From the NCBI GenBank assembly GCA_029891345.1, contig CM057005.1, positions 60,281,760 through 60,345,759 of the forward strand: 64,000 nt of DNA. Reading direction: 5' to 3'. The notes under the pieces were generated by a model. It was not told where the DNA came from. It made no database searches and worked only from the letters and a program-made list of their open reading frames with translations. Below are positions 30,332 to 47,700 of this stretch, piece by piece (within the stretch, counting starts at the first letter, position 1; the number at the start of each line of letters is the position of its first letter). Origin of the DNA: Dryococelus australis (taxonomy: Eukaryota; Arthropoda; Insecta; Phasmatodea; Phasmatidae). Made by a program: the position numbers and the translations under genes.

Positions 30332-30405
30332 ATACGTATAAAATATTTTGGAAATACCAGTGAACTGCGATGTTGTATTGTGCCGAATATTTTGGACACA
30401 TAAGT

Positions 30406-31049
30406 AGTAGATATATAATGCGGGAACCAGCGCAGCGTACTTTTTCCGGCAATTTCAACCAAAAGTACAAGAAAAAACTAACATAACTATTTCCCGTTAT
30501 TTTTAACGATAGCACAAGAAAAAAATTAAAAACTCAATCTGAAATTCGATTAAAAAAAACGATCAAACTCAAGCAATTTTAAGTTAAAATCCAGCAAATT
30601 TCTCAGTTTCTAGTTACTTTTTATTATTTATAGAGGCTCCATTTCTCATCAATTTTCATCAAAAAACCATGCATTTTAACCCAAATATCAAGTAATTTTA
30701 TCGTTTTCATGCTACTCTTTCTACTTTCTAGAAACCTCATTTGGTCTCAATTTTCATCAAAAACAAGCAAATTTAAGCCAAAAATCAACTAGTTTTATCG
30801 TTTTAAAGCTACTTTTTCTACTTCCAAGAAGCTTCATTTGACCTTAAATTTAATCGAAAACCAAGCATTTTTACCCCAAAATCAAACAAATTTACCACTT
30901 TTTTTCTTCTAAAAACCTCCGTGCAGGATTTGTGTCGATTTAAAACAGCAAATTTATGCTAAAATCAAGCAAATTTAAGCTAAAATCAAGTAAATTGATG
31001 CTAAAATCAAACGAAATATGAAATAAGATATTTTATAGATTCAAATTTA
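30406..31049 (+). repeat. Polinton left terminal inverted repeat
   Basis: About 640 bp, inverted match to 44452-45087. The outer 130 bp are unique in sequence. The inner part is a series of imperfect subrepeats built on AAATCAAGCAAATTTAAGC. Confidence 0.9.
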
Positions 31050-31127
31050 AGCTAAAATCAAAATTAATGTTGTCTTATTATTCTTTGCAGTTTATATTCG
31101 AAGCTCTACTAATTTTTTAAAAACTTC

Positions 31128-32870
31128 TTATATTTGCTCTAGATTTTCTCCAATATCTTGAAGTTTATATCTATCGTCAACAAATTTTAAGAGTGTATAT
31201 TGTAAGTATTGTAAATTTAAATGAAATTTGTGAACTATGTTTTTAAGAAGTTCAGATGCATTATCTAATATATTGGAAGGTGGTCTTGAACCATCATCAC
31301 CACCTTTTAAAATATTAGTCAAACTGCATGGAAACACAGGGATTTTTATTTATAAAGAAAATATTCTTATTAAGAGAATGAAAAAACTCATTTAGAATTA
31401 TGAAAATTATATTTTATTTGATGAAATAAATCACCTATATATCTAAAAACTCGTAAATGTTTTAAAAGCAACGAATTAACTATAAGTCTAAAATATCGTA
31501 TTAAAATATCGAAACATTCTGTTGATTCTTCCATTTAATAATATTAAAACTTTATATATCTTCAGTAATTCTTCCCTTCAAATAATCATAAGTTAAATTT
31601 CTTTTACTAATTAAAACAATACAAACTGTTCCTCTTCAATAACTTTATTAAAATCACTAATTTTTGTGTTTGTTTTTTCTTTAACTACAGTAGTTTTTCT
31701 GTATAAACAATCTGTGACATATAATGGTATTCGTCCCAAAAATGAATAGTAATTATCATCACCATCAAAGTTTTCAGTTTATAATAAAGTTCATTATTTC
31801 TATAGTCGGTATCTAGAATCATTACAAGGAAAAAATTGTTTAAGACAAACACCGTTTTCAATGTTAAGATTCCAGTTTTCTTTAGGAAACATTTAATTTC
31901 TACCGTTTTTTAACATGAATATTTCTTACATTACGATAATCAAACATAGTAGCGTGTTTATGCTGTTCAGCACGATTTCTTCTTTTAAGTTGAAAACCTA
32001 AAATTACAAAATCAATCATATCAAATTTTAAATTATTAACCTGATCTTTTATATCAAAGTTAAAAACAGTTCAACCACCAGGAACTTCTTTTTCTAAAAA
32101 TAGCCAATAATCAAAACTAATACGATTTTTTGGAACTTTGTATATTTTTTCTTTAATTTCAATGACTGTGTTAGATTCAAATTCAACAATAGGCCATATA
32201 ATTTCTAATTTTCGAATAACAATTTTACCAGGATCAGGACGATGTTAGTAACTTTGTCGTATTAACCTAAAGTTTCATAAAGAAATAAACAGTTGTTATT
32301 AGATGAATTACGAAAAAAAAGTAATTTTATAACCACCTTTCCAATCAATCTCATTGTTTTCACGAATAAAACCAAACAAATATCTCAGCGGATACATTAT
32401 TTCATTTGTTTTATCACTAGAAACAGGTTTAACTTCGTCTGTTATATGACTAGAAACAGATTTATCTCGCTATAGATGATCAATACCAGTTAATTCTAAA
32501 TAATTTTGTTCACTGGGTGATCTTAATAAAGCATTCATCGTTGTTGATGTTATACCAGGATTATCAACAGCTTCGCTAATATTTCCATGTCTTGAAATTT
32601 CTACTCTGGAAAATTGAAAAGAAATGTTCGAACAAACATCAACATTATCTAAATTATCACATTTTGCTTCATCTCCAACTTGATCTCTCTTTAGTAAACT
32701 GAATTGCTCATAAACGTGTCATTTGGAAAAGAAAACCCCTCACCTATAGGAATATCAAATTCAATTCTATTATTGTAAACATTTAAATTCCCCCTAGTTT
32801 GATCAGTTGGGGGAAAAGTTTGTCACTCAAAAACTCTCAATACTTTTATAATAACTCATTTATAAGAAAA
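31128..32870 (-). pseudogene. Polinton major capsid protein remnant (double jelly-roll type)
   Basis: Minus-strand fragments resemble the Polinton major capsid protein, which would build the icosahedral shell. Visible pieces include NPGITSTTMNALLRSP near 32510-32580, close to the conserved GITSTLK block of this family, and VILGFQLKRRNRAEQ with DYRNVRNI near 31930-32020, matching the conserved ...F..QTDRKN...FD.C.LRN... region. The assignment rests on these blocks and on position next to the left repeat. It is multiply broken. Confidence 0.65.
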
Positions 32871-32897
32871 TATATATATATTAAAAATTCGCATATA

Positions 32898-33715
32898 AAT
32901 GACGCAATCAAAGGGAGGTTCTCGAGTTAAATTACTCATCGAAAGATACAAAAATGCAAAAAGGACCATGAAAAAGAATATGAAAAATTAATAAGAAAGA
33001 ACAACCATTAATCGACGAATTACGAAATATCGGTAAAAAAAAAGTAGAAAAAGTGAAGAAAATAAAAATTTAATAACACTAGTTCCTGTTGTATTAAAAA
33101 AATTTGATTATCCACCTACTCCTGAAGAAACATCGTTTGTAAGAGAATTATTCTCAAAATCTCCTAATGTGGAAGAGCAAATGGGAATTGTACCATTGAA
33201 AAATTTACACATGCAGCGTCTGATTCTACTGTAAATCTCGGGAAAAAATTTCAAAAAGAATGAATGTTATTCAATACAAATTAACGGAAGGACTTTCTAA
33301 TTTGTTAACAAAAGGAAAAGAAGAAGATCTTTAGGATAATTTCACTGATACCGATTATGAAAACTACACGAAATTTTTTTCAGATACCAATGCTGCATTC
33401 CAAGAATATAATCCAAGAAAGAAAAATAAACTCGAATAGAAGTTCGAATTACAAAAATATAATTATACAAATTTATAACTATATAAAAGAACCGCATTCA
33501 ATAACAGCACCAAACACACTAGCAAATTATGTCTCCCAGAACTTCTAGATCTGGAGAAAATATAAAAAATACAACAATTTGCCAAAAGCATATGTTTCGA
33601 AGGATGATGATAGAAAATTGTTTGATAGATTATTAGTTATTCATGGTGAAGAAAGTACTGGAAATAAAAATTATTACAATAATATGTAAACATAATGAAT
33701 ATGCTAAACAATAAA
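32898..33715 (+). pseudogene. Polinton gene remnant, unassigned
   Basis: Coding-like AT-rich sequence, divergent from the capsid gene. It begins with a lysine-rich MTQSKGGSRVKLLIERYK stretch and continues through pieces such as LVPVVLKKFDYPPTPEE. I do not recognise the family; the position among virion genes suggests a structural or accessory protein. Broken. Confidence 0.4.
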
Positions 33716-34150
33716 TTTTCTGTTTTTGTCATTAATAATCCCAAAGGAATTCCATATATTATAACAATTTTAAATATAACACCACATTCATTTTGGAATC
33801 CAGAACATAATGGCAAAAGTATTATAAATTGAGCTTTTAATAATTTAAATTTACCCGAAATGCATTCGCCAGGCTATAATTATTGTGAACCATTTACAAA
33901 ATTAAATGAAAAGTTGGAAAAAAGTGACACAGGAATAAATTAAATTAGATGAAGCGTGCAAAAATCACAATATTGCTTATACAGATCGTAAAGATTTAGA
34001 ATGTAGACATGAAGCTGATAAAATGGTACAAAAAGAAGCAAAACAAATTACATTAGATAAAAATACACCAATTGGTGAAAAAATTTGCTTCTGCTGCTGT
34101 TGGCTCAACTGTGTTTACAGAAAGAAAATTAGGATGGTGAATTAAAATGT
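33715..34150 (+). pseudogene. Polinton phospholipase A2-like protein remnant
   Basis: Fragments include GYNYCEPFTKL near 33870 and HNIAYTDRKD near 33970, with the downstream CRHEAD-like stretch. The order YCGP.T.L ... D.AC..HD..Y is the signature of the phospholipase A2 domain of parvovirus VP1 and of similar proteins in Polinton-like viruses, where it is thought to help virions breach membranes. The calcium-loop and catalytic-histidine regions are recognisable. Broken. Confidence 0.6.
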
Positions 34151-34334
34151 TCTATTAATTATATATGTATATATACTTATAAGTGAAGATAAAAAGCTGA
34201 TCTTTCGATAAACCCATTGATCAATTAAGATATATCGGTATAGAATTTTTTTAAACAAAATATCTACTTGAGAAAATAAATAAAAAATTAAAAGAAGGTA
34301 AAGGTTTCTTTTTAACTTAGACACTTCGAATAGT

Positions 34335-34365
<31 letters not shown>

Positions 34366-34384
34366 CAGGAAATGAATTACATCA

Positions 34385-34600
34385 CAAAGTAAATACACCA
34401 CTTATATTTCCAATTTTTTGGTGCACTTGGATCTTTAGCCGGCGGAGCAACTGCAATTTTTAATTATGTCGAACGAACTATAAAAAATAAAAAAAGAATT
34501 AGGACAACAGAGACACAATTTAGCAATGGAAAATAAATCAGGAAGAGATTTAGTGGCAAAAAAGAAGGGAAGACGAAAAAAGAAATTAGTATATACACAC
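34385..34600 (+). pseudogene. Polinton small hydrophobic virion protein remnant
   Basis: Contains FGALGSLAGGATAIFNYVE near 34415-34470, a glycine- and alanine-rich hydrophobic segment followed by a basic stretch. Similar short proteins sit just before the protease in other Polintons and are compared with adenovirus membrane-lytic or core peptides. Function is inferred from position and composition. Confidence 0.5.
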
Positions 34601-34604
34601 TATC

Positions 34605-35018
34605 TAATATCGATATTGAAAAAAATGTAAAAATATTAAATATAAAAAATGTCATAAATGTTTATATGATTGGTGAATTACCGAAAATATGCACAACAAT
34701 GAATGTGCTGTGGTTAATTTTGACATTTCATCAAATCCCGGAACTTATTGGGTTTGTTATTTTAAAAATATTAATGCTATTTACTATTTTGATTCATTTG
34801 GAGGCAATATTTCTAGTGATTTAATTAATTATTTCAAAAACGGAACTATTTATTACAATGATGATCGAATTCAGAATTATTTTAATTCAATTATATGTGG
34901 AAATTTATGTTTAATTGTATTGCATCTTTTTTCGAAAGATTTTAGGTTTAATGATTTAATTTCTTTGTTATTAAATGACGGATATATTTGGAAAACCATT
35001 TATCAAATCTTTGAATAA
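34605..35018 (+). pseudogene. Polinton adenovirus-type cysteine protease remnant
   Basis: Would mature capsid precursors. Blocks NNECAVVNFD, YWVCYFKNINAIYYFDSFGG and CGNLCLIVLHLF (34689-35018) match the family order: substrate-loop region, catalytic-histidine strand, the YFDSFG block and the catalytic-cysteine helix. The upstream piece IDIEKNVKILNIKN near 34610-34650 matches the usual N-terminus. About the expected length for the family. Confidence 0.8.
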
Positions 35019-36010
35019 AATTGTTGACACAAGTGCTTATGCTTTAAAAAAAGATGTTGATTTAAAATACATAACAAATGCTTCTGATTACGCTCCAAAT
35101 ACATATATAGATTCACAATACAATTCGGGTGTTACTGGTTTACAAAGTAAACTAAGGACATGATTTGATTATACAAAATCTTATGATTCTTTATTAAGGC
35201 ATATAATTGTTAATACAGATGATCCTAGAGACGATAAAGACCCAGTCAATAAACATTTTTAAAATTAAAATAAAAAGCTTATATTGCATCAAAAGAAGAT
35301 ATACATTTAAAATTCAGTAATGCTATTTCTTATTACACAAAACAAATAAATAATGCAATGCAGGTACTAAAAAGGGATGTAGATTGAAAGTACAATATTA
35401 TTGTTACTGGTTTACAAGATTAACTTAATAAAGTTTTTGTTCATACAACAGATTATGTTTCTATTCAAAATCGTAGAATTAATAATACAGCTGATCCTAT
35501 AGATGGAAAAGATACGGTCAATAAAAAATATTTCTATAAATAAATAGCTTATAAATTGCAAAATTTAAACCAATCAGTTTTGAATTATTTTGATTCACTT
35601 GCTAAATCGAAAATTGAAAAATGTAAGGAAGAAAAATGACAAAAATTTTATTTACCTGCAAAGCGGAATAAAAGTAATAATAATTCTCACTTACATAATA
35701 ATAAAATATTCTTTACTTTTTTGATGGATTGTAATGTTTATAAAATAATTACTGTTAATCCCAATTTAACTGATGATACTGTGACTGCTATTTAGAGTTC
35801 TCAAAAAATAAATTACAGTAAACCTTTTGATGTTAACATAGGTGATATTTTAACCTTTAAAATAAAAAAAACTAAATTATCTGAATAAGATGATGGTTTG
35901 ATGACTACAATAGGAATATTCGTAAAATATAAAGATGAATAACTTTATTCTTATCAAATGGAAATACTTGGTGCTTGAAGTGTAAAAAAGTCACCAAAAC
36001 AATAATATAA
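34975..36010 (+). pseudogene. Polinton fibre-like protein remnant with tandem modules
   Basis: Two modules of about 270 bp follow each other. Each has a VTGLQ block (near 35128 and 35400) and ends with a DP..DKDPVNK-type block: DDPRDDKDPVNK near 35217 and ADPIDGKDTVNKKYF near 35490. The latter resembles the N..DP...DAVNKKYVD linker found in phage tail-fibre and other virion spike proteins. The 35690-36000 segment could be a C-terminal beta-rich tip domain. Overlaps the end of the protease gene slightly. The role is inferred. Confidence 0.5.
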
Positions 36011-36025
36011 AAACTTGAAAATACT

Positions 36026-37008
36026 ATAAATGGACAGTTAGTTCAGAAAAGTAAATGTTCAATATTTGATTCCAATAAATCAACATTTAAAAAAAATTTC
36101 CAATGTAAGAGAAGGAATAATCATTGAATTATATAAACCTGCACGAAAAAGTGTTCCAAGAAGAAAAGTAATTTGGTATAGTATTGATGATTTATGGCAA
36201 ATCGATCTTGTTGAGATAAATACTGGAAATTTAAATGTATATCACATATAAATAATGGATATAAATATATTATGACAATTATTAATGTTTTTCAAAATAT
36301 GCACTCGCTGTAACAATTAAAAATAAAACAGCAAAAAATTTAGTATATGGTCTAGAATCTATATTAGTTAAAAGAAAATCATGCAATATTCAAAGCTATA
36401 ATGGATCCGAAAATTATAATAAAATTTTTTAAGAATTTATGCAAAAATATAACATCAATCACTATTCTACATTCAGTGAACTTAAAGCCAGTATTGTAGA
36501 AATATATAATCCTACAATAATGAACGAAATGTGGAAGAAATATGCTTTAAATGACAATTTTTAAAAGGTAAATATATTAGATGATTTAGTTAAAGAATAC
36601 AACAATACAAAACATAGATCCATTGGTATGGAACCAATTGAAGTTAATAAGACCAATGAAAAATTTAATGCAAACAAATTTTGTAGACATGATTACTAAA
36701 CTGAAATACAAAGTTGGCGATATTGTCTGTGTAAACAAATCTTTGAAAATGGATATTTAGCTAATTGTACAACATTATTTACCATTTTTGAGGTTTTAAA
36801 TTATGATGTGACAACTTACAAACTGAAAGATATCACAGGCAAAGAAATGAAGGGTAGTTTTTATGAATATCAAATTATGAAAACAGACTATCCAAATGAA
36901 TATTGTGTTGAAAAAGACTTAAAAACTAAAGTTGATAAAATTGATGTAAAATGGTTAGGTTTTGATAACTTGCAAAACTCTTGGATTAATAAAACATATG
37001 TTTTGTGA
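36026..37008 (+). pseudogene. Polinton integrase remnant with C-terminal chromodomain
   Basis: Retroviral-type DDE integrase that would insert the element and make the 6-bp target duplication. Visible blocks: YKPARKSVPRRKV then DDLWQIDLVEI (first catalytic aspartate region, near 36140-36215), NGYKYIM and SKYA-like sequence (36255-36300), a second-aspartate region near 36395, and the YNNTKHRSIGMEP block near 36600. The tail at about 36900-37008 (VDKIDVKWLGFDNLQNSW) has the K(V/I)KW.G....SW pattern of a chromodomain, often found at the end of Polinton integrases and thought to target chromatin. Broken. Confidence 0.85.
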
Positions 37009-37296
37009 ATTTAAATATTTTTGTGAAATTAAATATTTTTATGCAAGTAATAATTTTAAATGCAACACAAAAACACTACTTTAATGCTCGTTTAACATAC
37101 ATAAAATGCCTCCAATGCTTGTTCGATGCACATTTACCTATGGTGAGCTTTATTTTCTTTAAAAGTTACAAAAAGGTTTACAGATATGTCTATCATGCCA
37201 GGCACTTTATTAAAAAGGGTCTAGAGATATTTCTTTCATGCCAGTGACCCAATTTTTTTGGCCTTAATTAGCACCTGTAAAACTCCAATTGAAAAA

Positions 37297-37447
37297 CCCA
37301 ATCACCTCTTCACTCGGCCGGCCTATTTTAATGTATTTTTTTAAGTGGAGAGATGATTGGGTTATTTAATTGTTATTTTTTGTTTATTTTATTTTATGAT
37401 ACTCCCGATTCATATAGTGGGGTGCCTTCCACTATATGAAGCACCCC
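37297..37447. repeat. Cluster of short inverted repeats
   Basis: Two structures: CCCAATCACCTCTTCACT with its near complement at 37297-37361, and a perfect 12-bp stem TTCATATAGTGG/CCACTATATGAA at 37409-37440. The second interleaves with GGGGTGC (37419) and GCACCCC (37441), a pseudoknot-like layout. Confidence 0.7.
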
Positions 37448-37957
37448 ACCCAATACATCTGATATACTACAGTATAGCACAGAGTGTACCATTTATTTGC
37501 ATCAATACTCATATATTGAATATATGAGCAAGAGCATGGTTGTTTAGCCAAAATGTTGAATGATTTGGTTATAATCTAATAGTGAAAATATGGGTGGCCC
37601 CATACTCACATTATTTAATTATCTGCTCAGACTGGGAGTCGAACCCACGACCTACACATTTGAAATCAAACCCCTTGTCGCTGAGCCACTGTGACAAGAC
37701 AAGTGAGGCAATGTTTTAAAGTGTTCATATGTCGAGCTGGAAGCTTATTATCAAGAGCCGTGCAGTCTGTTTGCCGCACTGCGAGTAGGTAGCGATGCAG
37801 TTGTGATAAAATACTTCCTGTCGCGGAGAGAGAGCTCACTGCCATCGCAGACAAGGAGAGCTCGTTTCGAGGCAGAGTGCACTGTAATATTGGTTTTTCC
37901 TGTAGCCAGTAAATAGCGCGATGGTCGCGAAAAAAGAAAAAGAATTCTCGTATACAA

Positions 37958-37962
<5 letters not shown>

Positions 37963-38014
<52 letters not shown>
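37963..38014. repeat. (GA)26 microsatellite
   Basis: Uninterrupted GA dinucleotides on the plus strand, within the foreign block of the Polinton. Confidence 0.95.
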
Positions 38015-38017
<3 letters not shown>

Positions 38018-38029
38018 ACATTTTTATAT

Positions 38030-38700
38030 GATTTCTGTACTTCCATTCCTTCATTTTTCTGCTCAAATCTAATGTGAAGAAACCAAAATCTTTGTCCAGC
38101 ACGTTGCGTAAAGCTCTTTAAATTTATCGATAATAATATCTTCATCCAACAAAATCATTATGAATCTGACATAAATTTGTAATATCTTGTTGAAATATGA
38201 ATAAAAAGTTTGCATTATCCTTTACTAATTGTTTAGGTACTTCTGAATAAGTTTGAGCTAAATAAAATATATCAATATTTTGATGTCTTCCCATAGTAAA
38301 GTACTCGCGAATCACATCTCGATTCTCTAAAATTACATAGTTGAAAATAATCAGTGAATCATTTTCACAGTGCTCTAAAGGGGTCATTTCATCATTGCTA
38401 CTTAAAAAATAAGCGAACTTTTCATTAAACTTGTTGGATATTACATCAGTCATTTTGTAACTGAATATATTTTGGTTGATTAAAATTTTTTGAGCAAAAA
38501 TACAATTGATTAAGATTTAACCAACGTATCTTGTAAATAAAACTGATCATTAAATTCATCTTGCCAGAATTACTGGGCCTGATGATAATGGCTCTCATAT
38601 TGTCATGTAAAAAAATTCCACCATTATTTTTCTTACTAGCATCTCCTTCGGAAATTTAAACACCAACACCTCAGTCAACCCTTTTCATTTATGACATAAT
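38030..38700 (-). pseudogene. Polinton packaging ATPase remnant (FtsK/HerA type)
   Basis: Minus-strand ATPase that would pump DNA into the capsid. A P-loop-like SNSGKMN near 38560-38590 stands at the Walker A position. NDSLIIFNYVI near 38340 fits Walker B (hhhhD/N), and GRHQNIDIFYLAQTYSEVPK near 38220-38300 matches the conserved GRH.N....L.Q.Y...P motif of Polinton ATPases. Coding pieces continue to the edge of the foreign block at about 38025. Broken. Confidence 0.8.
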
Positions 38701-38723
38701 TTTTGTACTAAATTGATAATAAA

Positions 38724-39415
38724 GTGTTAAATAATAGTTCAATTGTAAGGAAGAAGCTTCACTATGATACAATTCATCAAGGCAAATCTATTGCATTGGT
38801 TAGTTTTATTACAAAATTCTTGACTCCAAATATAAACAATAATACTATAATAACAATTGAAATATTGAGTGCTGTGGTTGATAAAAACAAAGTTATAATC
38901 ATTCCTAGAGACCAATACGATATTGAATCTTCAAAGGAAACTATAAATTCGATTGTCTCATGTTCAACAAGTAACAGTGAACTGACATCAGAAAATGTGA
39001 AAAATAGAGTTGTGGTTAAATCTGAGTTTGATATTAAAGTTGATGATCGATTATCTGATATGCTTGATTTAGGGAGAAATATGCTTATTGTAAAAGACAA
39101 AGTTACTGTAGGTACTAAGCTACATAATTTAAATTCATTTAAAACAAATGTGCATTGTAATTTAGCCTATGGAAGGTTTATATAAAATATGACGAATCTA
39201 ATTATTTAGGAACTGATATATTTGCTAGTTTTCCATCAAAAAGTATGTTTGGCTTCAGAGATTATGTTAGTTATGAACCACCATATCCAATTTTTATAGA
39301 ATAAATAATGAGCAGTTTAATCACATTATTTTAGAAGTTAGGGATGAAAATGGTAAACTGATTGATTTTGATGGTTCTAATATTGACATTGTTTTGGAAA
39401 TTAAAGTCATTTAAA
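38724..39415 (+). pseudogene. Polinton virion protein remnant, possibly minor capsid
   Basis: A fairly long readable stretch (38724-39185) followed by pieces ending in RDENGKLIDFDGSNIDIVLE near 39330-39410. A terminal (T/R)D..G.LIDF.G motif is typical of an uncharacterised or penton-like protein next to the ATPase in other Polintons. I cannot confirm the fold. It is divergent from the ATPase and convergent with the polymerase. Confidence 0.45.
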
Positions 39416-39479
39416 ATATAATAATATAATATAGTAATATATTAATATAGTAATATAATAATATAAAAATTAATTTAAA

Positions 39480-42400
39480 ATTATAAGTTTTGAAAACCAT
39501 ATGGTATTATATCTATTTTATTTTATTTTGTAATCGCAATGACTTAATGCTATTTTATTAACTTCGACTGTATATATTTCATGTTTCTCACTCCTTATTA
39601 AATACATTGTTCTATATTCTATTTTCTCTTTAAACAAACAATTCTTGTAGACCTCAAATGTAATCCTCTTGTTAACAACACACTTCTTTACACCATTTGA
39701 TATTTTATTTTCTTTATTATCAACTCTATAAGCCTACATTTTTGGTCTTAAACCAACAAATTCTTTCATTATTTTCCCATTACATTCGTATTTCATCTTA
39801 CCTATAACTTTCTTATTTATTTGTGGCTTGTGATAGATGTCATTTGAATAATCACTTGTATCAAATTTTTTTATCACCGACTTCATATCTTTGTAAAAAT
39901 CTTCTGTTTTTATGTTATAAATCTATTACTCAGTATCTTGATAGCACAAATCCATTTTATCACAATATTTTGGTTCCATCACTTTATAATGGGAATCATA
40001 CATTAATTTTTTGATATATCTAGAATTGAGAAACCATTAAATTATTATTAAATTTTACACTTGTTTTATAAATATGTATGGCCACAAGATTCTCATTAAA
40101 TATAGTACTTTTCTTGAAATTTGCTTCTGCTACTAATTTTTCACAGACCTTTCCATTTGACATCAGTCTTGTATCTACCCTATTCTTAATATTTTCCGTA
40201 GTTTTGCCGAACACAGAATTATTCATCAGCTTATCAGCTTATAAGATTTTATTTAAATTTGTTTTTAGCATTAGTTCTCATTGTTGTATTTAAATCTATA
40301 TATTTCTTCGACCAATTAGACCGACTAAACTTCAATATTCTATGTATTTTAGTAAGTTTTAATATATTATTTAGACACTGTTTTAAATAACGATAGTTAA
40401 TTACACACCTTTGTTTATTAAGTAAAGTTGTTTATAATTTAGACTGATATGTTCCTGGAACTACCTTATTTTCTGGACAAAATGGAAGATCTTAACATAA
40501 TTTATGTAGATCTTGTGGATACTCTAAATCTACTTCTAAAATGTAACCATGAGCAGAATCATCCTTAAGATTTAATACATAATTTTGCCAGAAATCTAAT
40601 TGAAATTCTGTATAATAAACCCATTCGAAACCACCATATGGTAAATATTGAGGCATTGCCCAACCATATAATTTATTCGCATCGAGATAAGCTAAATATT
40701 TAGACTATTGATTATGGTTAAAATCGTCGAAATATTTGTTATTGGCTTTGATATATTGTTTGCAACATTGCGATATTCCACCTCTAATCCCGTTTTCTAC
40801 AATTAATATCAAATAATCATGTAATAAATCTAATGATTGTTTAGTCATTTATAACATTGCATCCCAAGATAATCCTGGTGCTGTAAAATACCACACATTT
40901 ATACACGTATTTCTGAAATTTTCGAATATATCTGCTAACAATAATACATCACTTTTTAATGATATTCGCCATGATTTTTTAATTATAAATTGGTTCCATA
41001 CAAGTTTTGCATTCCCAAAATCAGCATCAGTTATGTCAGATTCATTTAATTTATTGTGAAATTCACTCTTTGGTGGAAGTTCAGTTTCTTCAAATTTCTT
41101 CCAACTATCCACATAATCATATGAAAAAACACCCTTTCTTATAACCAAATCAACTTGATTTTTTGGAAGTAGTTTTGGGTGTGTTTCATTTGATCTTTAC
41201 TTAAATTATATGATAATTTATCAAAACTACTGGCCATAAATTTAATGTGTTTATAAACCTAATTTTTAAAATTTCTGCTGCTTTCCCAAAAGTAATACAC
41301 TTTTCTTCATTATTCGCAATTAAGTCTACATTTTTATTATCATATCCTTTCTTTTAAATAAATAAATGAGCATCATAGCCAGCTAAATAATGAAAATAAT
41401 TTGTAACAAAATCGGGTAATTTTAATTGTATATTACAATTATTACATACTGGATTAATGAATTTCCCTGTTATATGATCATGATGATGTACTTTTTTACT
41501 GTCCTTCATATATTCACATTCACATATAGAATTATTTTTATTTACTATATAACATTTTTTTCTTCTTTTGTTAGTGGATGCATTGGTTCAATTTCTGAAT
41601 ATATTTCCCCGATTTATTCTACTTCCATTTTTTCAATTAATTTTATAAATTTCTTATGTGCATTTGGACCTCAATATACTACTGGAGGCTTATAATTAGC
41701 ATAACTAAATACAATATAATAGCAAAAACCAGAAACTTCATGTAATTGATATTTCATAGTATATGATTCATCATTCAACTTTAAATCAATGTTATTTATA
41801 TGATCATTAGTAAGTTTGTATCATTCTTTAATTATTTCTTTATTAAAGCCATATGAATATATTCTTTCGTTAAATTGGATATTTTTGATAAGGTTAAATT
41901 TACTTATTTCTCTTGTGTTTGGTTTGGTAGTTGAAATTTTCTTTAGAATTTATTCAAAAATCGGCATATATTGTGAAAAGAAATTTCATTTTATTGTTAT
42001 AATTCTTCGATTTTATTTGCTCTTCTTTCGAAGGTAAATTGATTCTTACTGATTCATATTTAGAGCAGTCTTCTGTATGTATATTTAATCTTTCTTGAGA
42101 ATAAAAGAATTGAAGACACATATCACACATATAAGTTTTCCTTTAAGGTTTTTTTTTTTTTTTTTTTTTTGCTGAGAGCAGTTTTGATAAATCCAACAGT
42201 AATGTGAGTTTTTATCATCTTTGAAGTAAAGTAAATTTATGTTTTTCCATTTTAATTTTTGTAAATTTTAGTGCATATACTGTAGACTTATCTTCAATAG
42301 AGTATACATTTATGGATGTACCAATTTGATTTTCTATTTTTCGTATATCATCAATTTTAATAGAATGTTCACAATTATTTATTTCTTTATCAATATTTAG

Positions 42401-43835
42401 CCTCACATTTCTCTATTTGGTTACTCTTTGTGGATTGTTTTCAGCTGGATACAATGCTGATATTATTGACCAAAGAAAACATTTTCTATAATTATTTTAT
42501 TTCTTCTTAATAAATTCTGGTAGATCAATTTATGATGACCCATTTAAAGGAGTATACATATCTATAGCTCATTGTATTCCAATTACTCTATCTAAAGTTC
42601 ATCCTGAACCTCTTCTTTGAAATTCAGATAATTGTGTAATTCCTGTTTTATGATTTTGTATATCTTTATAATTTCTACTTCCCTTGATATTCTATGAATA
42701 TGACAGAAATTTAAAAAGTTCTACTTGATTATTTTCCTGCTTGCGACCATTGGTATATCATTTAATGCTAGTTTTCAAGCCCTCTAAATGTTCTAAGATG
42801 ATCTTGTATTATCTAAAAAAAAAATTTTATACAAGTTAAAAATTGATTAGGCTGCACTAAATTAAAGGAATTCCCAATTTTATATGTTGATATCCTTTTT
42901 TTAAAAGTTTTATTAACTTAGTAATTTTTATTGGTTCTTCTATTTATTTTGCTTACGAATATGTTAGTAGAACAGGGGAATATTTCTCTTAATTATTTTC
43001 TCTCTTGCCTATATAATTAATTGATATTGGCATCTGATAAAGGTAAATTTGCAAAATTATTCTTTGTTATCCATTCTGTAACCTGCTCACTTTTACTTCT
43101 AGGTCGTACAAATAAATTATTAGAGGAATGGAATTTTTTTTTTTTTAATTCACTTCTATCTTTTGAATATAGTTGTATGATATTGACATATGAAAATGGT
43201 AAAGTTTCTTTTTCTTTGCTCGTTTATAGTAAATGGTGTAATAACTGCAATAAAATCAGTTTTCCTTAGATTATACCGATATTTAATATAGCAATGAAGA
43301 ACTATAAAAATAGTAAATATATTGGAAAATGAAATCTATAAAATGTTTAAATTATTGATAATAAGTGAAATTGTTTATAACTGTGTAGCTTACATTTAGC
43401 TGTGTGTTTAAAGGTGCCCCTTCTCTGTAAGTTCAGTAAATTTCTTGTCAAGACGATAATTATTTGTTACATTTTGTTCTAAGTTTGTTCTAATTTCTTG
43501 TGTGAACTAAAAAATATTTTATATATCTATTCTCATTACATACTCTACATGTTATTGTTGGGTAATTAACGTGTTGAATTTCATTTAGAATGTCCACTAA
43601 CACATTGTGTGATTTAGTATTTTTATGTTCTTTGAGAGGTGCAACACCTCTCAAAGAACACAAATTTATTTTTGGCGTTTTCAATTACACCTTTTTTACA
43701 ATTGTTATAAAGTGTATCCTTATTTTTTTATGGTAGTAAAATTTTTCTATGTTTAATACTTCGCCACACGTTTTGCATTGCTTAGATATGGTGTTTTTTC
43801 CCATTTCATTGCTGAACAGTGATTCCATTTTTGTG
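39480..43835 (-). pseudogene. Polinton protein-primed DNA polymerase B remnant
   Basis: The replicative polymerase of the element, minus strand, spanning about 4.3 kb as expected for a protein of well over 1000 residues. Near the start is a zinc-finger-like QCKTCGEVL (about 43750). Further on: INVYSIEDKSTVYALKFTK (near 42270), a motif typical of Polinton polymerases; KSDVLLLADIFENFRNTC (about 40930), the third exonuclease motif; TAPGLSWDAML (about 40860); YLAYLDANKLYGWAMPQY (about 40650-40700), the palm motif A; and NNSVFGKTTENIKNRVD (about 40200), motif B. Broken many times. Confidence 0.88.
43626..43660. repeat. Perfect 16-bp stem hairpin
   Basis: TGTTCTTTGAGAGGTG at 43626-43641 and its exact complement at 43645-43660, with the loop CAA. 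It lies in the N-terminal part of the polymerase remnant. Confidence 0.95.
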
Positions 43836-44160
43836 TTTATTTAAAAGGAATTAAATTTGAATAAAAAAATATTTTAATTAAAATAACAATAAAAATAAAA
43901 ATAATAATAAAGTTAAAATTAATATTAATATTAAAATAAAGATTATTATGAAAATAATAAAATATTAAAATTAAAAGTAAAATAAAAATAATAAAATTAT
44001 AACAATAATTGAAATTAAAATAATAGTACAATAAAAATAATAGAAATAAAATAATAGAATCAGAAAATAATAATAAAATTAAAATGAATAATTTAATAAA
44101 ATTGTTTTATTATTAATGTTTTTTACTTTTAAATAAACACAAAAATGGAATCGCTGCTTA
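43806..44160. promoter_or_regulatory. Divergent intergenic region with duplicated leader
   Basis: The polymerase (-) and the small gene (+) start on opposite sides of an almost pure A/T spacer (about 43860-44100). Both are preceded by the same leader and begin with the same codons: TTTAAATAAACACAAAAATG is present at 44127-44146 on plus and its counterpart ends at about 43831 on minus; both continue GAATC(A/G)CTG. This looks like an inverted duplication of a promoter/leader that serves two genes. Confidence 0.6.
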
Positions 44161-44381
44161 AAAAGTTGAACAATTCATTTGAATGGACTAAATTACACGA
44201 CCTAGAAAAAAATAAAAAGTATGTTGCTACCGAATTCCAACCATACGAATCTAAATATGGGAAAAATATTAGTTGTATTCAAGGTGGTAAATATAGAATT
44301 ACCTCACCAGATCGCTTTGTAGATATGTTTGATAAAAATACTTTAAAATTAATAAATGAGAAACAAGTTTTTATAACATAA
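44145..44381 (+). pseudogene. Polinton small conserved protein
   Basis: A 78-residue frame beginning MESLLKKLNNSFEW. The middle, ATEFQPYESKYGKNISC, followed by YRITSPDRF, resembles the short protein seen in many Polintons and related viruses with a (V)....T.YG..I.V.L......LP.R pattern. Its biochemical role is not settled. It lies next to the right terminal repeat, divergent from the polymerase. Confidence 0.5.
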
Positions 44382-44451
44382 AGGTTTGAAAGAAATGAAA
44401 AATGGAAAAACTATGCATGGTTTTGTAGTCTCTTAAAAATATATAAATTCT

Positions 44452-45087
44452 ATTAATTTGAATCTTGTAAATATTTTATTTGATTTTAGTTTAAAGTTGA
44501 TTGATGTTAGCTTAAATTTGCTGTTTTTAAATCGACACAAATCCTGCATGGCTGTTTTTTGAGGGGAAAAAAAAAGGTAAATTTGTTTGATTTTGCAGTA
44601 AAAATTGCTTGATTTTCGATTAAATTTAAGGTCAAATGAGGCTTCTAGGAAGTATAAAAAGTAGCTTGAAAAGTATCAAATTAGTTGATTTTGGCTTAAA
44701 TTTGTTTGTTTTTGATGAAAATTGAGACCAAATGAGGTGTCTAGAAGGTAGAAGAAGTAGCTTGGTAACGATAAAATTACTTGAGTTTGGGTTTAAATGA
44801 ATGATTTTTTTTATGAGAATTGTTTCTTTTTGATGAAAATCGATGAGAAATGGAGCTTCTATAAACAAGAAAAAATAGCTTGAAAATTAGATATTTGCTT
44901 TATTTTAGCTTAAATTTGCTTGATTTTGATCGTTTTTTCAACGGTTTTTCGTATTTTGAGTTTGTAGTTTTTTTCTTGTACTTTCTTTAAATATAACGGG
45001 AAATAGTTATGTTAGTTTTTTCTTGCATTTCTGGTGAAAATTGCCGGAAAAAGTGCCCTGCGCTTGCTCCCGCATTGTATATCTACT
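44452..45087 (-). repeat. Polinton right terminal inverted repeat
   Basis: Inverted counterpart of 30406-31049. The outer end reads CCCGCATTGTATATCTACT. It carries the same AAATCAAGCAAATTTAAGC-type subrepeats and small indels relative to the left copy. Confidence 0.9.
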
Positions 45088-45093
45088 ATAAGC

Positions 45094-45448
45094 CAAAAGT
45101 CCATTTTGCGAGCGAAACCTTTTTCAAGGGACTTTTCCTATTTTAATGATTTTTGTCCCCTTATTAACTTCATTGATTTACGATTATTTTCGTAACCGTT
45201 AATCCGCGAGCAGCAGACATTGAGAATCTGAATGCATGTGTGTAGAGAAAGCCTTGGGGGGATGGGTAGAGTGGAAGTCCGAAACGCAATATATCTTCAT
45301 TTATTGACCTCGCGACCACTTTGTTCAAATCACTCATCTCCTCTGCAGGGAGAAGCGTCACATTTATATATTGCTTTTGAGATGAGTCATGACGTTACAA
45401 ACCTCACCGTCAATCTATGTCACGCTGAGTTTGTGCCTGTTTTGGTTA
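45094..45448. other. Unassigned sequence
   Basis: No gene or repeat recognised. Confidence 0.4.
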
Positions 45449-45851
45449 AGTCTGTTCTCGATTAAATGAGCACTTTTGAACTCAACCTTGGAAAAAAAGT
45501 CATTGCTCCTACCTGCATATAACTTGACGGGAGCACTGAGTATCATGAGCCCAGTATAGTTGGTAACGATAGAGGGAAAGTAGTTCTAAAATCTTATTAT
45601 TGAATTAATAATGGCAGGTAACTATTTGTGATACTTAAGATAATATTTTTTTCGCATTTTATATTATTAATGCATATTTGTAAGAGATTTACTTTTTTAA
45701 AGATTTCACTGTTTCACTTGGCCGACGCACGAATAAAGTGATGAGGCACATCTAGTGTTAATTTTACATAACGCGGAAGAATACACAACCTGCATACACG
45801 TACATCTTAAGCAGGGCTTTCAAATGTGCTCATTTAATCGTGAACAACCTA
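45449..45851 (-). mobile_element. Short TIR element, subfamily A, copy 6
   Basis: Reverse orientation. The left end AGTCTGTTCTCGATTAAAT is diverged; the right end is CATTTAATCGTGAACAACCTA. The interior matches 8314-8707 (TCTTAAGCAGGGCTTTCAAA near the right end). Confidence 0.85.
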
Positions 45852-46186: not shown

Positions 46187-46422
46187 TAGGCTCTTCACGG
46201 TAAAGTGAGCACTTTTGAAGCCCTAGATACTTTTTTCTTACAGCAATTTTTTATTTTTTAACCACCTTTATAAATAAATATTGTTATGTAACTAATAAAC
46301 ACAATATGTATATTCCACAACACTCGGAAGTTAACGTCTAAAGCTAAAATAAAATATATGGATTGGTTATTATTCCAACTGAGAGGGCTTTCGAAAGTGC
46401 TCACTTTACCGTGAATAGCCTA
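46187..46422 (-). mobile_element. Short TIR element, subfamily B, copy 4
   Basis: A 236-bp element with ends TAGGCTCTTCACGGTAAAG and CTTTACCGTGAATAGCCTA, followed by TA. Same orientation as 11432-11669. Confidence 0.88.
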
Positions 46423-47700
46423 TATAAGCACGTATTTCCCAGACAATTTCTGGAAAAGATATCATTTCCAAAATGTTAATAATGTTCAGAACAGTGATGA
46501 ATATCACAATTAACTAATTGTGACCGAATTAGACTGTACTTTTTACGTTACAATTTTAGCTTCAACCAGCTGGCGTAGGGTATTAAGCTCTAAAGCTAAA
46601 GCTGCTGTGTTACTCTGCGACAAGCTAATAAGTATAATGGTATTGGAACCACCGTTTTGGAGCCGCGATATCTAGAAATAGCAGTCAAATCAGTGAAATT
46701 AATTCACTATGATAATTGATATTTGGAGGAGCTTGTTTAATTGTAAGAATTTTTTACTATATTAATGTTAGAGTGTTGCTCAATCGTGATTGGCTCCTGT
46801 AAAACGTGCAGGCTTCCTAAAGTTAGCATGCTTGGCACGTCTCTTGTGAGCGTGGTGTCGGTAAATTGAATATGTTTATGACTGCTGAGAGACCTGTTTA
46901 ATTTCTTCTTTCTGCTCTTTCTGTCTTTCTACCAGATAGAAAAATGTAACATTGGCATGTGCTGTTTGACTAGTAATCAAGCTTATACAAGCGACACTAT
47001 AAAATTACTAGAAACATATTTTTCTGCGACACAAATTATATGCGTAACTTTCAAAAGTAACAATTATTTAGTTTCAGCTGCGATAAGTTTCGGATACTAT
47101 ACACTTAAATTAAGCAAGTGTAACTCAGAACTACTTTCTATAATTCGCATTACTGCCAACGTAGTCATAAACATTGAGATAATACGGGGTTGATTGCGCG
47201 TATCAGCTGGGCTATAAGCGGCTCTATGTCACGACATTTATCTGTCCCTCCCCTCCCCTCATCAACCCAATTGCAAGTGCCAAATTCATATGGCTTCTAA
47301 TAATGTCTGCAGAATGTCAACACATATACGTTCTTCAATACATGTTGTAATGAAATTACTTTGAATTACTGTTAGGCAGAATTAATTTTTGGGCAGAAGG
47401 CGAAAATATACGTAGAAATCTATGACCGGAAGTGCTCGCATTAAAATATATGCATTTACAGGAATTTTGTAAAAATGGTGTCGTCAGTAGTTTTTAAACC
47501 AACAAATAACAATCTGTAACATATATCCGTTAGTCACTTGAAACGGAGACTCATTTCGGTAGAAAATATAAATTTACTTTCAGTGAACTGACACACTTGT
47601 TCGAACGAATTAGGCATGCGGTGATGCCCCGCCTGCATTGAAGACTGAGGTGTGAAATTATAATAGTTTCTATTGACGGCGACAAAAAAATTATGTGTGC
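46423..47700. other. Unique sequence, no gene seen
   Basis: Short frames only (for example 46957-47193) without recognised motifs. Confidence 0.4.

What the first reader, a model, noticed from the sequence alone, without database searches (positions are those of the whole stretch)
30406..45087. End-to-end Polinton fossil with both terminal repeats and a near-perfect target duplication
The element keeps both roughly 640-bp terminal repeats, AG...CT ends, a 6-bp target duplication (ATAAGT/ATAAGC) and remnants of at least eight recognisable virus-type genes, although each gene has decayed. Complete outlines with decayed contents are useful for dating and for reconstructing gene order. The arrangement has the capsid gene at the far left, pointing outward and separated from the ATPase by the integrase block.
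Basis: partly seen in the sequence, partly recalled or inferred. Interest (0 to 1): 0.75.

Follow-up and report, generated by a model that had tools for sequence, protein, structure and literature searches.

The report
Decayed Polinton in a stick insect
This is a dead but end-to-end copy of a virus-like transposon (a Polinton, or Maverick), one of a large family of such elements in a stick insect genome; it keeps a clear outline and gene order but is a member of a known kind.

Summary
Window 30406-45087 has alignable terminal inverted repeats (629 and 652 bp, 87% identical, K2P 0.143), AGTAGA...TCTACT ends and a 6-bp target duplication matching at 5 of 6 bases. Inside are remnants of PolB (13 collinear pieces), an rve integrase, an A32-type ATPase, an adenain-type protease, a phospholipase-A2-like gene, and an outward-pointing left-end gene that is probably the double-jelly-roll capsid (weakest call). 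Two further genes are conserved but unnamed. The host is almost surely Dryococelus australis, the Lord Howe Island stick insect (contig C4 has exactly the published scaffold N50). The family is large: three gene pieces each matched 150 of 150 scored candidates (lower bounds, the window included), and 4 of 4 selected other copies show the same gene order, with the integrase inverted in one. The named genes of this copy are broken, so it is inert. No empty site could be shown: the right flank matched only itself and the left-flank repeat stops short of the junction. Mavericks are already reported as abundant in stick insects, and the named gene set resembles that of the Spodoptera Mavericks. New member of a known kind.

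The parts
30406..31034 (.). left terminal inverted repeat, with internal 97-bp and 21-bp tandem repeats
44436..45087 (.). right terminal inverted repeat
30400..30405 (.). target site duplication, left (ATAAGT)
45088..45093 (.). target site duplication, right (ATAAGC), 5 of 6 identical
31131..32822 (-). probable double-jelly-roll major capsid gene, broken into several frames, pointing outward
   Evidence: pieces match sister copies in order; 150 of 150 scored candidates match one piece, window included; DJR-like_dom PF21738 below cut-off in sister pieces L070:699-1100 (E 0.001) and L069:1959-2342 (E 0.012), not in four other homologous pieces
33833..34142 (+). phospholipase-A2-like gene remnant, two pieces in different frames
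   Evidence: PF08398 E 0.00069 and 0.005 on two adjacent pieces, both below the cut-off; similar to L029 and L034 genes that pass the PF08398 cut-off
34393..34627 (+). possible small glycine/alanine-rich gene (weak)
   Evidence: phmmer with L029:2605-3084, E 0.029, 8.3 bits against 6.9 best of 4980 shuffled pieces; matched in 3 of 4 other copies
34677..35015 (+). adenain-type cysteine protease remnant; the catalytic His position holds Tyr
   Evidence: profile of two environmental homologues, E 1.5e-9; top-ranked but not significant PDB match is adenain 1avp, E 0.61
36042..37005 (+). rve integrase in five pieces, with a chromodomain-like end (weak)
   Evidence: five collinear pieces on an L029 frame whose rve domain passes Pfam; Chromo E 0.04
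37022..38030 (.). GC-rich non-coding spacer carried by part of the family
   Evidence: 39 other places matched at 70-85% identity in their main segment; no blastn match in copies L099 and L097
38145..38655 (-). A32-type packaging ATPase, two frames, Walker A altered (by eye)
   Evidence: PF04665 E 0.0071, below cut-off; sister piece L062:2285-2668 passes the PF04665 cut-off, E 4.3e-5 and is 60% identical
38712..39411 (+). conserved gene of unknown family (candidate minor capsid, a guess)
   Evidence: 150 of 150 scored candidates matched, window included; no significant Pfam match and no PDB match
39521..42267 (-). family B DNA polymerase, C-terminal two thirds, 13 pieces, at least 6 frame changes and 6 in-frame stops
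43493..43840 (-). small zinc-ribbon-like accessory reading frame (weak)
   Evidence: PHROG matches up to E 0.0018 over about 25 residues
44133..44378 (+). conserved small gene beside the right repeat, family unknown
   Evidence: 150 of 150 scored candidates matched, window included; no Pfam match at 1

Best explanation
A Polinton (Maverick) inserted at this site on contig C13 of the stick insect genome and has since decayed. While its lineage was alive, it replicated linear DNA with terminal inverted repeats by its family B polymerase (protein-primed by family, inferred), and its integrase joined the ends to a 6-bp staggered target, leaving ATAAGT/ATAAGC (duplication shown, mechanism inferred from the integrase family). 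The ATPase, protease, capsid-type and PLA2-like genes point to packaging, maturation and membrane passage of a particle (inferred from the families). The copy is now inert: PolB has at least 6 frame changes and 6 stops, the integrase is in five pieces, the protease lacks its catalytic His, and the ATPase, PLA2-like and capsid-type genes are split over frames (shown). It is one member of a large family in this genome with a conserved gene order.
For: TIRs, ends and target duplication. PolB pieces match 13 of 13 contigs picked by a PolB motif from the prokaryote genome collection, best E 4e-31, and map in order to residues 373-1293 of L034/L033 PolB over nearly the same length. Integrase, protease, PLA2-like gene and ATPase as in parts. 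Other copies: 38 of 41 TIR matches lie outside this element (only 40 of 1711 candidates scored); 2 of 3 other elements examined carry 6-bp duplications, 5/6 and 6/6, none seen in the third; 4 of 4 other copies show capsid-type gene, PLA2-like gene, protease, integrase, ATPase, unknown ORF and PolB in that order (chosen because two of the genes lay 5-6 kb apart; integrase inverted in one and only one short integrase piece in another).
Against: The PolB N-terminal third is not recognisable. The target duplication is imperfect. No empty site was found. The capsid call is weak: four of six homologous sister pieces gave no match and PDB searches of two window capsid pieces gave one unrelated match at E 1.4 and none. 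A profile of environmental ATPases did not lift the window ATPase piece above shuffled controls (7.7 against 9.3 bits). Third-position excess, a sign of past selection, is 0.475 for ATPase and 0.442 for PolB but 0.306 for the capsid gene, while presumed non-coding readings reach 0.40 and 0.43.
Confidence: 0.96

Rival explanations
1. The stretch is a composite of two or more Polinton fragments, or a nested pile of elements, that happens to end in matching repeats.
For: A GC-rich stretch 37.0-38.03 kb differs in composition; a second protease-like match lies at 32281-32472 on the plus strand (17.2 bits, best shuffled 8.9); direct duplication 35105-35288/35377-35560.
Against: The gene order runs through in four other copies; the GC-rich stretch recurs at 39 other places, several of them beside other copies' genes, for example C3:277774063, C2:53342262, C17:217892998, C2:251809521 and C2:134092333; the plus-strand protease-like match is antisense to capsid pieces conserved in sister copies; the right TIR is the highest-scoring match of the left one among those scored.
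Confidence: 0.03
2. It is an endogenous adintovirus that integrated from outside rather than a transposon that moved within the genome. This overlaps with the best explanation: it differs in lifestyle and filing, not in anatomy.
For: Virion-type genes and a PLA2-like gene are present; PMC11071296 (passages) defines adintoviruses by PolB with an OTU-like domain, BLAST-recognisable hexon and integrase with chromodomain.
Against: Lifestyle cannot be read from one fossil; the PolB OTU domain and the hexon comparison could not be tested. Many loci in one genome fit repeated spread inside one germ line, but repeated infection is not excluded.
Confidence: 0.3
3. Assembly artefact.
For: The published assembly is from error-prone long reads without short-read polishing (PMC10268593, passages), so some single-base frame changes may be sequencing errors.
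Against: The TIRs differ at 81 of 622 sites, far above sequencing error; the element lies inside a contig of 113,938,617 bases.
Confidence: 0.01

Closest known systems
Sf Maverick 1 and 2 of Spodoptera frugiperda cells (PMC5803895; passages and section 11 part 1 read)
   Same: PolB with an endonuclease-VII-like part, integrase with chromodomain, A32-like ATPase, adenovirus-type protease, a gene with a PLA2 domain
   Different: There eight small genes are tandem on one strand and the authors found no PY (double-jelly-roll) gene; here genes lie in both directions and a probable double-jelly-roll gene sits at the left end. No direct sequence comparison was made.
Vertebrate Mavericks (PMC8097293; passages and section 7 read)
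   Same: AGT-type ends, 6-bp target duplications, TIRs of 46-1447 bp, size 12.7-24.6 kb, PolB and ATPase on one strand facing the integrase strand
   Different: There integrase, minor capsid, major capsid and protease form one inward-pointing module; here the capsid-type gene points outward at the far left.
Mavericks of the stick insects Timema cristinae and Clitarchus hookeri (PMC5691397; one passage read)
   Same: Same insect order; [quoted passage not shown] cristinae (145,675 copies, 3.13% of the genome) and ranked third in C. hookeri
   Different: Gene contents are not described in that passage; no sequences compared.

Membership tests
Polinton/Maverick | long terminal inverted repeats with AG..CT ends | tested here: met
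Polinton/Maverick | 6-bp target site duplication | tested here: met
   5 of 6 here; 5/6, 6/6 and none seen in three other elements
Polinton/Maverick | family B polymerase of the Polinton type | tested here: met
   13 collinear pieces on homologues; of four homologous PolB scanned, L020 passes DNA_pol_B_2, while L033, L029 and L026 show no DNA_pol_B_2 match at 0.001
Polinton/Maverick | rve integrase | tested here: met
Polinton/Maverick | A32-type packaging ATPase | tested here: met
   through a 60% identical sister piece above the cut-off, 1 of 8 sister pieces scanned; window piece itself below the cut-off
Polinton/Maverick | adenain-type protease | tested here: met
Polinton/Maverick | double-jelly-roll major capsid protein | tested here: inconclusive
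   below-cut-off PF21738 in 2 of 6 homologous sister pieces
Polinton/Maverick | single-jelly-roll minor capsid protein | tested here: inconclusive
   38712-39411 is conserved but matches nothing significantly; its fold prediction failed, pLDDT 28.5
Group II (insect) Mavericks | no insertion of about 140 aa (VSR type) in PolB (PMC10328495, passage) | tested here: inconclusive
   window PolB runs along L033 PolB over nearly the same length, but whether L033 itself lacks the insertion is not established
Adintovirus | PolB with N-terminal OTU-like domain | not testable with these tools
   N-terminal third not recognisable; no reference sequences held
Adintovirus | hexon recognisable by BLASTP to reference adintoviruses | not testable with these tools
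   no reference sequences held

The most novel reading that the evidence does not exclude
A stick-insect Polinton lineage with its own architecture: a capsid gene turned outward at the left end, an integrase cassette that can flip orientation between copies (inverted in L097), and a captured 1-kb GC-rich non-coding segment that spread with one branch of the family.
Probability: 0.35. Interest if true: 0.4.

Novelty: new member of a known kind. Interest (0 to 1): 0.22.

Why it matters
It gives an end-to-end fossil that can be dated from its repeats and whose gene order can be checked against many relatives in one genome. The genome paper's main text has no occurrence of Maverick or Polinton and says that 1.56 Gb of repeats could not be classified (passages; supplements not read), so the family could help annotate that fraction. 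It does not change what is known about how Polintons work.

Tried and rejected
GC-rich 37.0-38.03 kb as an insert in this copy only: rejected, because 39 other places match, several beside other copies' genes. tRNA-like boxes that I saw there by eye are not borne out by Rfam: no match at gathering score in the window and no tRNA family among five matches up to E 1.

A second protease at 32281-32472 (+): 17.2 bits against 8.9 best of 4980 shuffled pieces, but it is antisense to capsid pieces conserved in sister copies and shows no further protease motif by eye; taken as chance, not fully explained.

IMG/VR searches with single window pieces and patterns gave no relative; the one contig (L001) holds unrelated frames. 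Of 18 contigs one, L013, matched window PolB. tblastn against phages: 0 of 2 queries matched. Among the 15 contigs no capsid piece matched; two weak matches of other frames (E 0.004, 0.006) are taken as chance.

Structure prediction: protease piece pLDDT 51.6; its Foldseek list has nothing at E 0.001 or better, best E 0.55, with the Ulp1-type NEDD8 protease at ranks 3 and 5. Unknown ORF pLDDT 28.5, unusable.

A single star-like burst: TIR distances within four elements are 0.136, 0.188, 0.10 (192 sites) and 0.19, between elements 0.09-0.24, while internal DNA identity to four other copies is 68-83%, so the family was already diverse; not supported.

Codon-position counts: share of mismatches at position 3 is 0.475 ATPase, 0.442 PolB, 0.419 PLA2-like, 0.399 integrase, 0.397 unknown ORF, 0.397 right ORF, 0.364 ORFx, 0.352 protease, 0.306 capsid; presumed non-coding readings give 0.426 (antisense of capsid), 0.400 (spacer), 0.385 (antisense of unknown ORF), 0.352 (TIR). 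Changes private to the window are counted once per copy, so the p-values are overstated. At most ATPase and PolB hint at past selection.

Empty site: the right flank matches only itself; the best left-flank matches end 68 bp or more before the junction, with 40 of 1807 candidates scored.
Full report
What is there. The two ends of 30406-45087 align from their first bases: 629 against 652 bases, 541 matches and 81 mismatches in 622 compared sites, 14 gap openings, K2P 0.143 (bootstrap 95% range 0.113-0.179). Both ends begin AGTAGATATA when read inward, and the six bases outside are ATAAGT and ATAAGC. Vertebrate Mavericks most often end in a doubled AGT and have 6-bp duplications (PMC8097293, passages and section 7), so the ends are of the expected type. 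With an insect substitution rate near 3e-9 per site per year (recalled, not measured for phasmids) the TIR distance gives roughly 24 million years; treat this as an order of magnitude, and only if the two repeats were identical at insertion.

Genes. Stop-to-stop pieces were searched one by one. Of 30 pieces scanned against Pfam, one passed a curated cut-off (endonuclease-VII-type finger, 41357-41587, E 3.5e-5). A motif taken from the window's PolB pulled 13 contigs out of the bacterial and archaeal genome collection, and all 13 match window PolB pieces; they are probably eukaryotic or viral contigs binned into MAGs (inference). One of 18 IMG/VR contigs found with a looser motif also matched, and a PolB alignment query found that contig again and one more. 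These served as comparators. PolB: 13 pieces map in order to residues 373-1293 of L034/L033; residues 406-1280 of L033 (875 residues) correspond to about 2.62 kb of the window, so there is almost no net length change. Integrase: five pieces in order on one L029 frame that carries both rve and PLA2-like domains above their cut-offs. Protease: E 1.5e-9 against a two-sequence profile, 32.0 bits where the best of 4980 shuffled pieces reached 8.9; adenain is the top-ranked PDB sequence at a non-significant E of 0.61, and in that alignment the catalytic His position is Tyr while the Cys-Gly motif is kept (the catalytic roles are recalled). PLA2-like: two adjacent pieces.

The host. The genome search answered from then on. 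The window is G000:C13:60281760-60345759 of a 3,415,067,245-base, 646-contig assembly. Contig C4 is 262,277,254 bases long, exactly the scaffold N50 printed for Dryococelus australis (PMC10268593, passages). The printed totals are close but not equal (3,421,391,311 bases, 1,879 scaffolds), as if small scaffolds had been dropped. The paper's main text has no occurrence of Maverick or Polinton.

The family. DNA_pol_B_2 gives 54 matches in this genome and none in 14 control genomes. The capsid-type piece, the unknown ORF and the right-end ORF each matched in 150 of 150 scored candidates (8,753, 10,109 and 10,459 loose first-look candidates); these counts include the window and are lower bounds. 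The outer 301 bases of the left TIR gave 41 matches, three of them inside this element. Three pairs of facing TIRs were examined: duplications 5/6, 6/6 and none seen; one of the pairs is only about 8.6 kb apart. Four copies with the capsid-type gene and the unknown ORF 5-6 kb apart were read in part: all four show the same order; the small GAGG-type gene was matched in 3 of 4, the integrase is inverted in 1 of 4 (L097) and reduced to one short match in another (L098). A fifth such pair (C6:114605757/114612049) was not fetched.

The capsid call. The window's minus pieces between 31131 and 32822 match sister copies in order. Of 14 sister pieces of this gene scanned, two, both homologous to window 31903-32070, match DJR-like_dom from profile position 179 on (E 0.001 and 0.012, cut-off not reached); four other pieces homologous to the same stretch did not. 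One further piece matched DUF6583 at E 0.0099 and another NPV_P10 at 0.12, taken as chance. This makes a double-jelly-roll capsid likely, not proven.

The ATPase. The window piece has Pox_A32 E 0.0071; of 8 sister pieces scanned, one passes the Pox_A32 cut-off, and it is 60% identical to the window piece. A profile of environmental ATPases did not separate the window piece from shuffled controls (7.7 against 9.3 bits).

State of decay. PolB pieces change frame at least six times and are cut by at least six stops (pieces and frames). About 12 stops would be expected over 2622 bases from the TIR distance alone; the observed numbers are minima, so the lesions fit decay since insertion and do not demand an earlier death.

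What is known. Mavericks have been reported as very common in stick insects (PMC5691397, one passage), and insect Mavericks with the same five named genes, including a PLA2-domain gene, are described from Spodoptera (PMC5803895). The element is therefore a new member of a known kind. Two paper searches for Polintons or Mavericks with stick insects (one paper; 15 of 358 papers listed) showed no title or abstract describing this family; that is not proof that none exists.

Noticed in passing
37022-38030: GC-rich non-coding stretch between integrase and ATPase, matched at 39 other places, present in copy L096 and in part in L098, without match in L099 and L097: possibly a captured segment that spread with one branch of the family.
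   Followed up: partly
L097 (5774-6666): The integrase block is inverted relative to the window and three other copies.
   Followed up: no
43817-43881 and 44092-44156: A 65-bp inverted repeat (78%) holds the starts of two divergent small reading frames that begin with the same residues; may be a shared divergent promoter.
   Followed up: no
43622-43664: A 43-bp near-perfect palindrome inside the zinc-ribbon-like frame.
   Followed up: no
35105-35288 and 35377-35560: Direct duplication (71%) downstream of the protease, in a stretch also matched in the four other copies.
   Followed up: partly
L020-L032: Thirteen contigs filed under bacterial or archaeal MAGs carry Polinton-type polymerase genes, probably mis-binned eukaryotic or viral DNA.
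   Followed up: partly
L029:897-2117: One reading frame carries both a PLA2-like and an integrase core domain, both above Pfam cut-offs.
   Followed up: no
32281-32472 (+): Protease-like match of 17.2 bits on the strand opposite the capsid gene, above all 4980 shuffled pieces; probably antisense chance, not explained.
   Followed up: partly
45445-45851, 46187-46425 and copies in both flanks: Two short repeat families with terminal inverted repeats (MITE-like), with several copies in the window.
   Followed up: no
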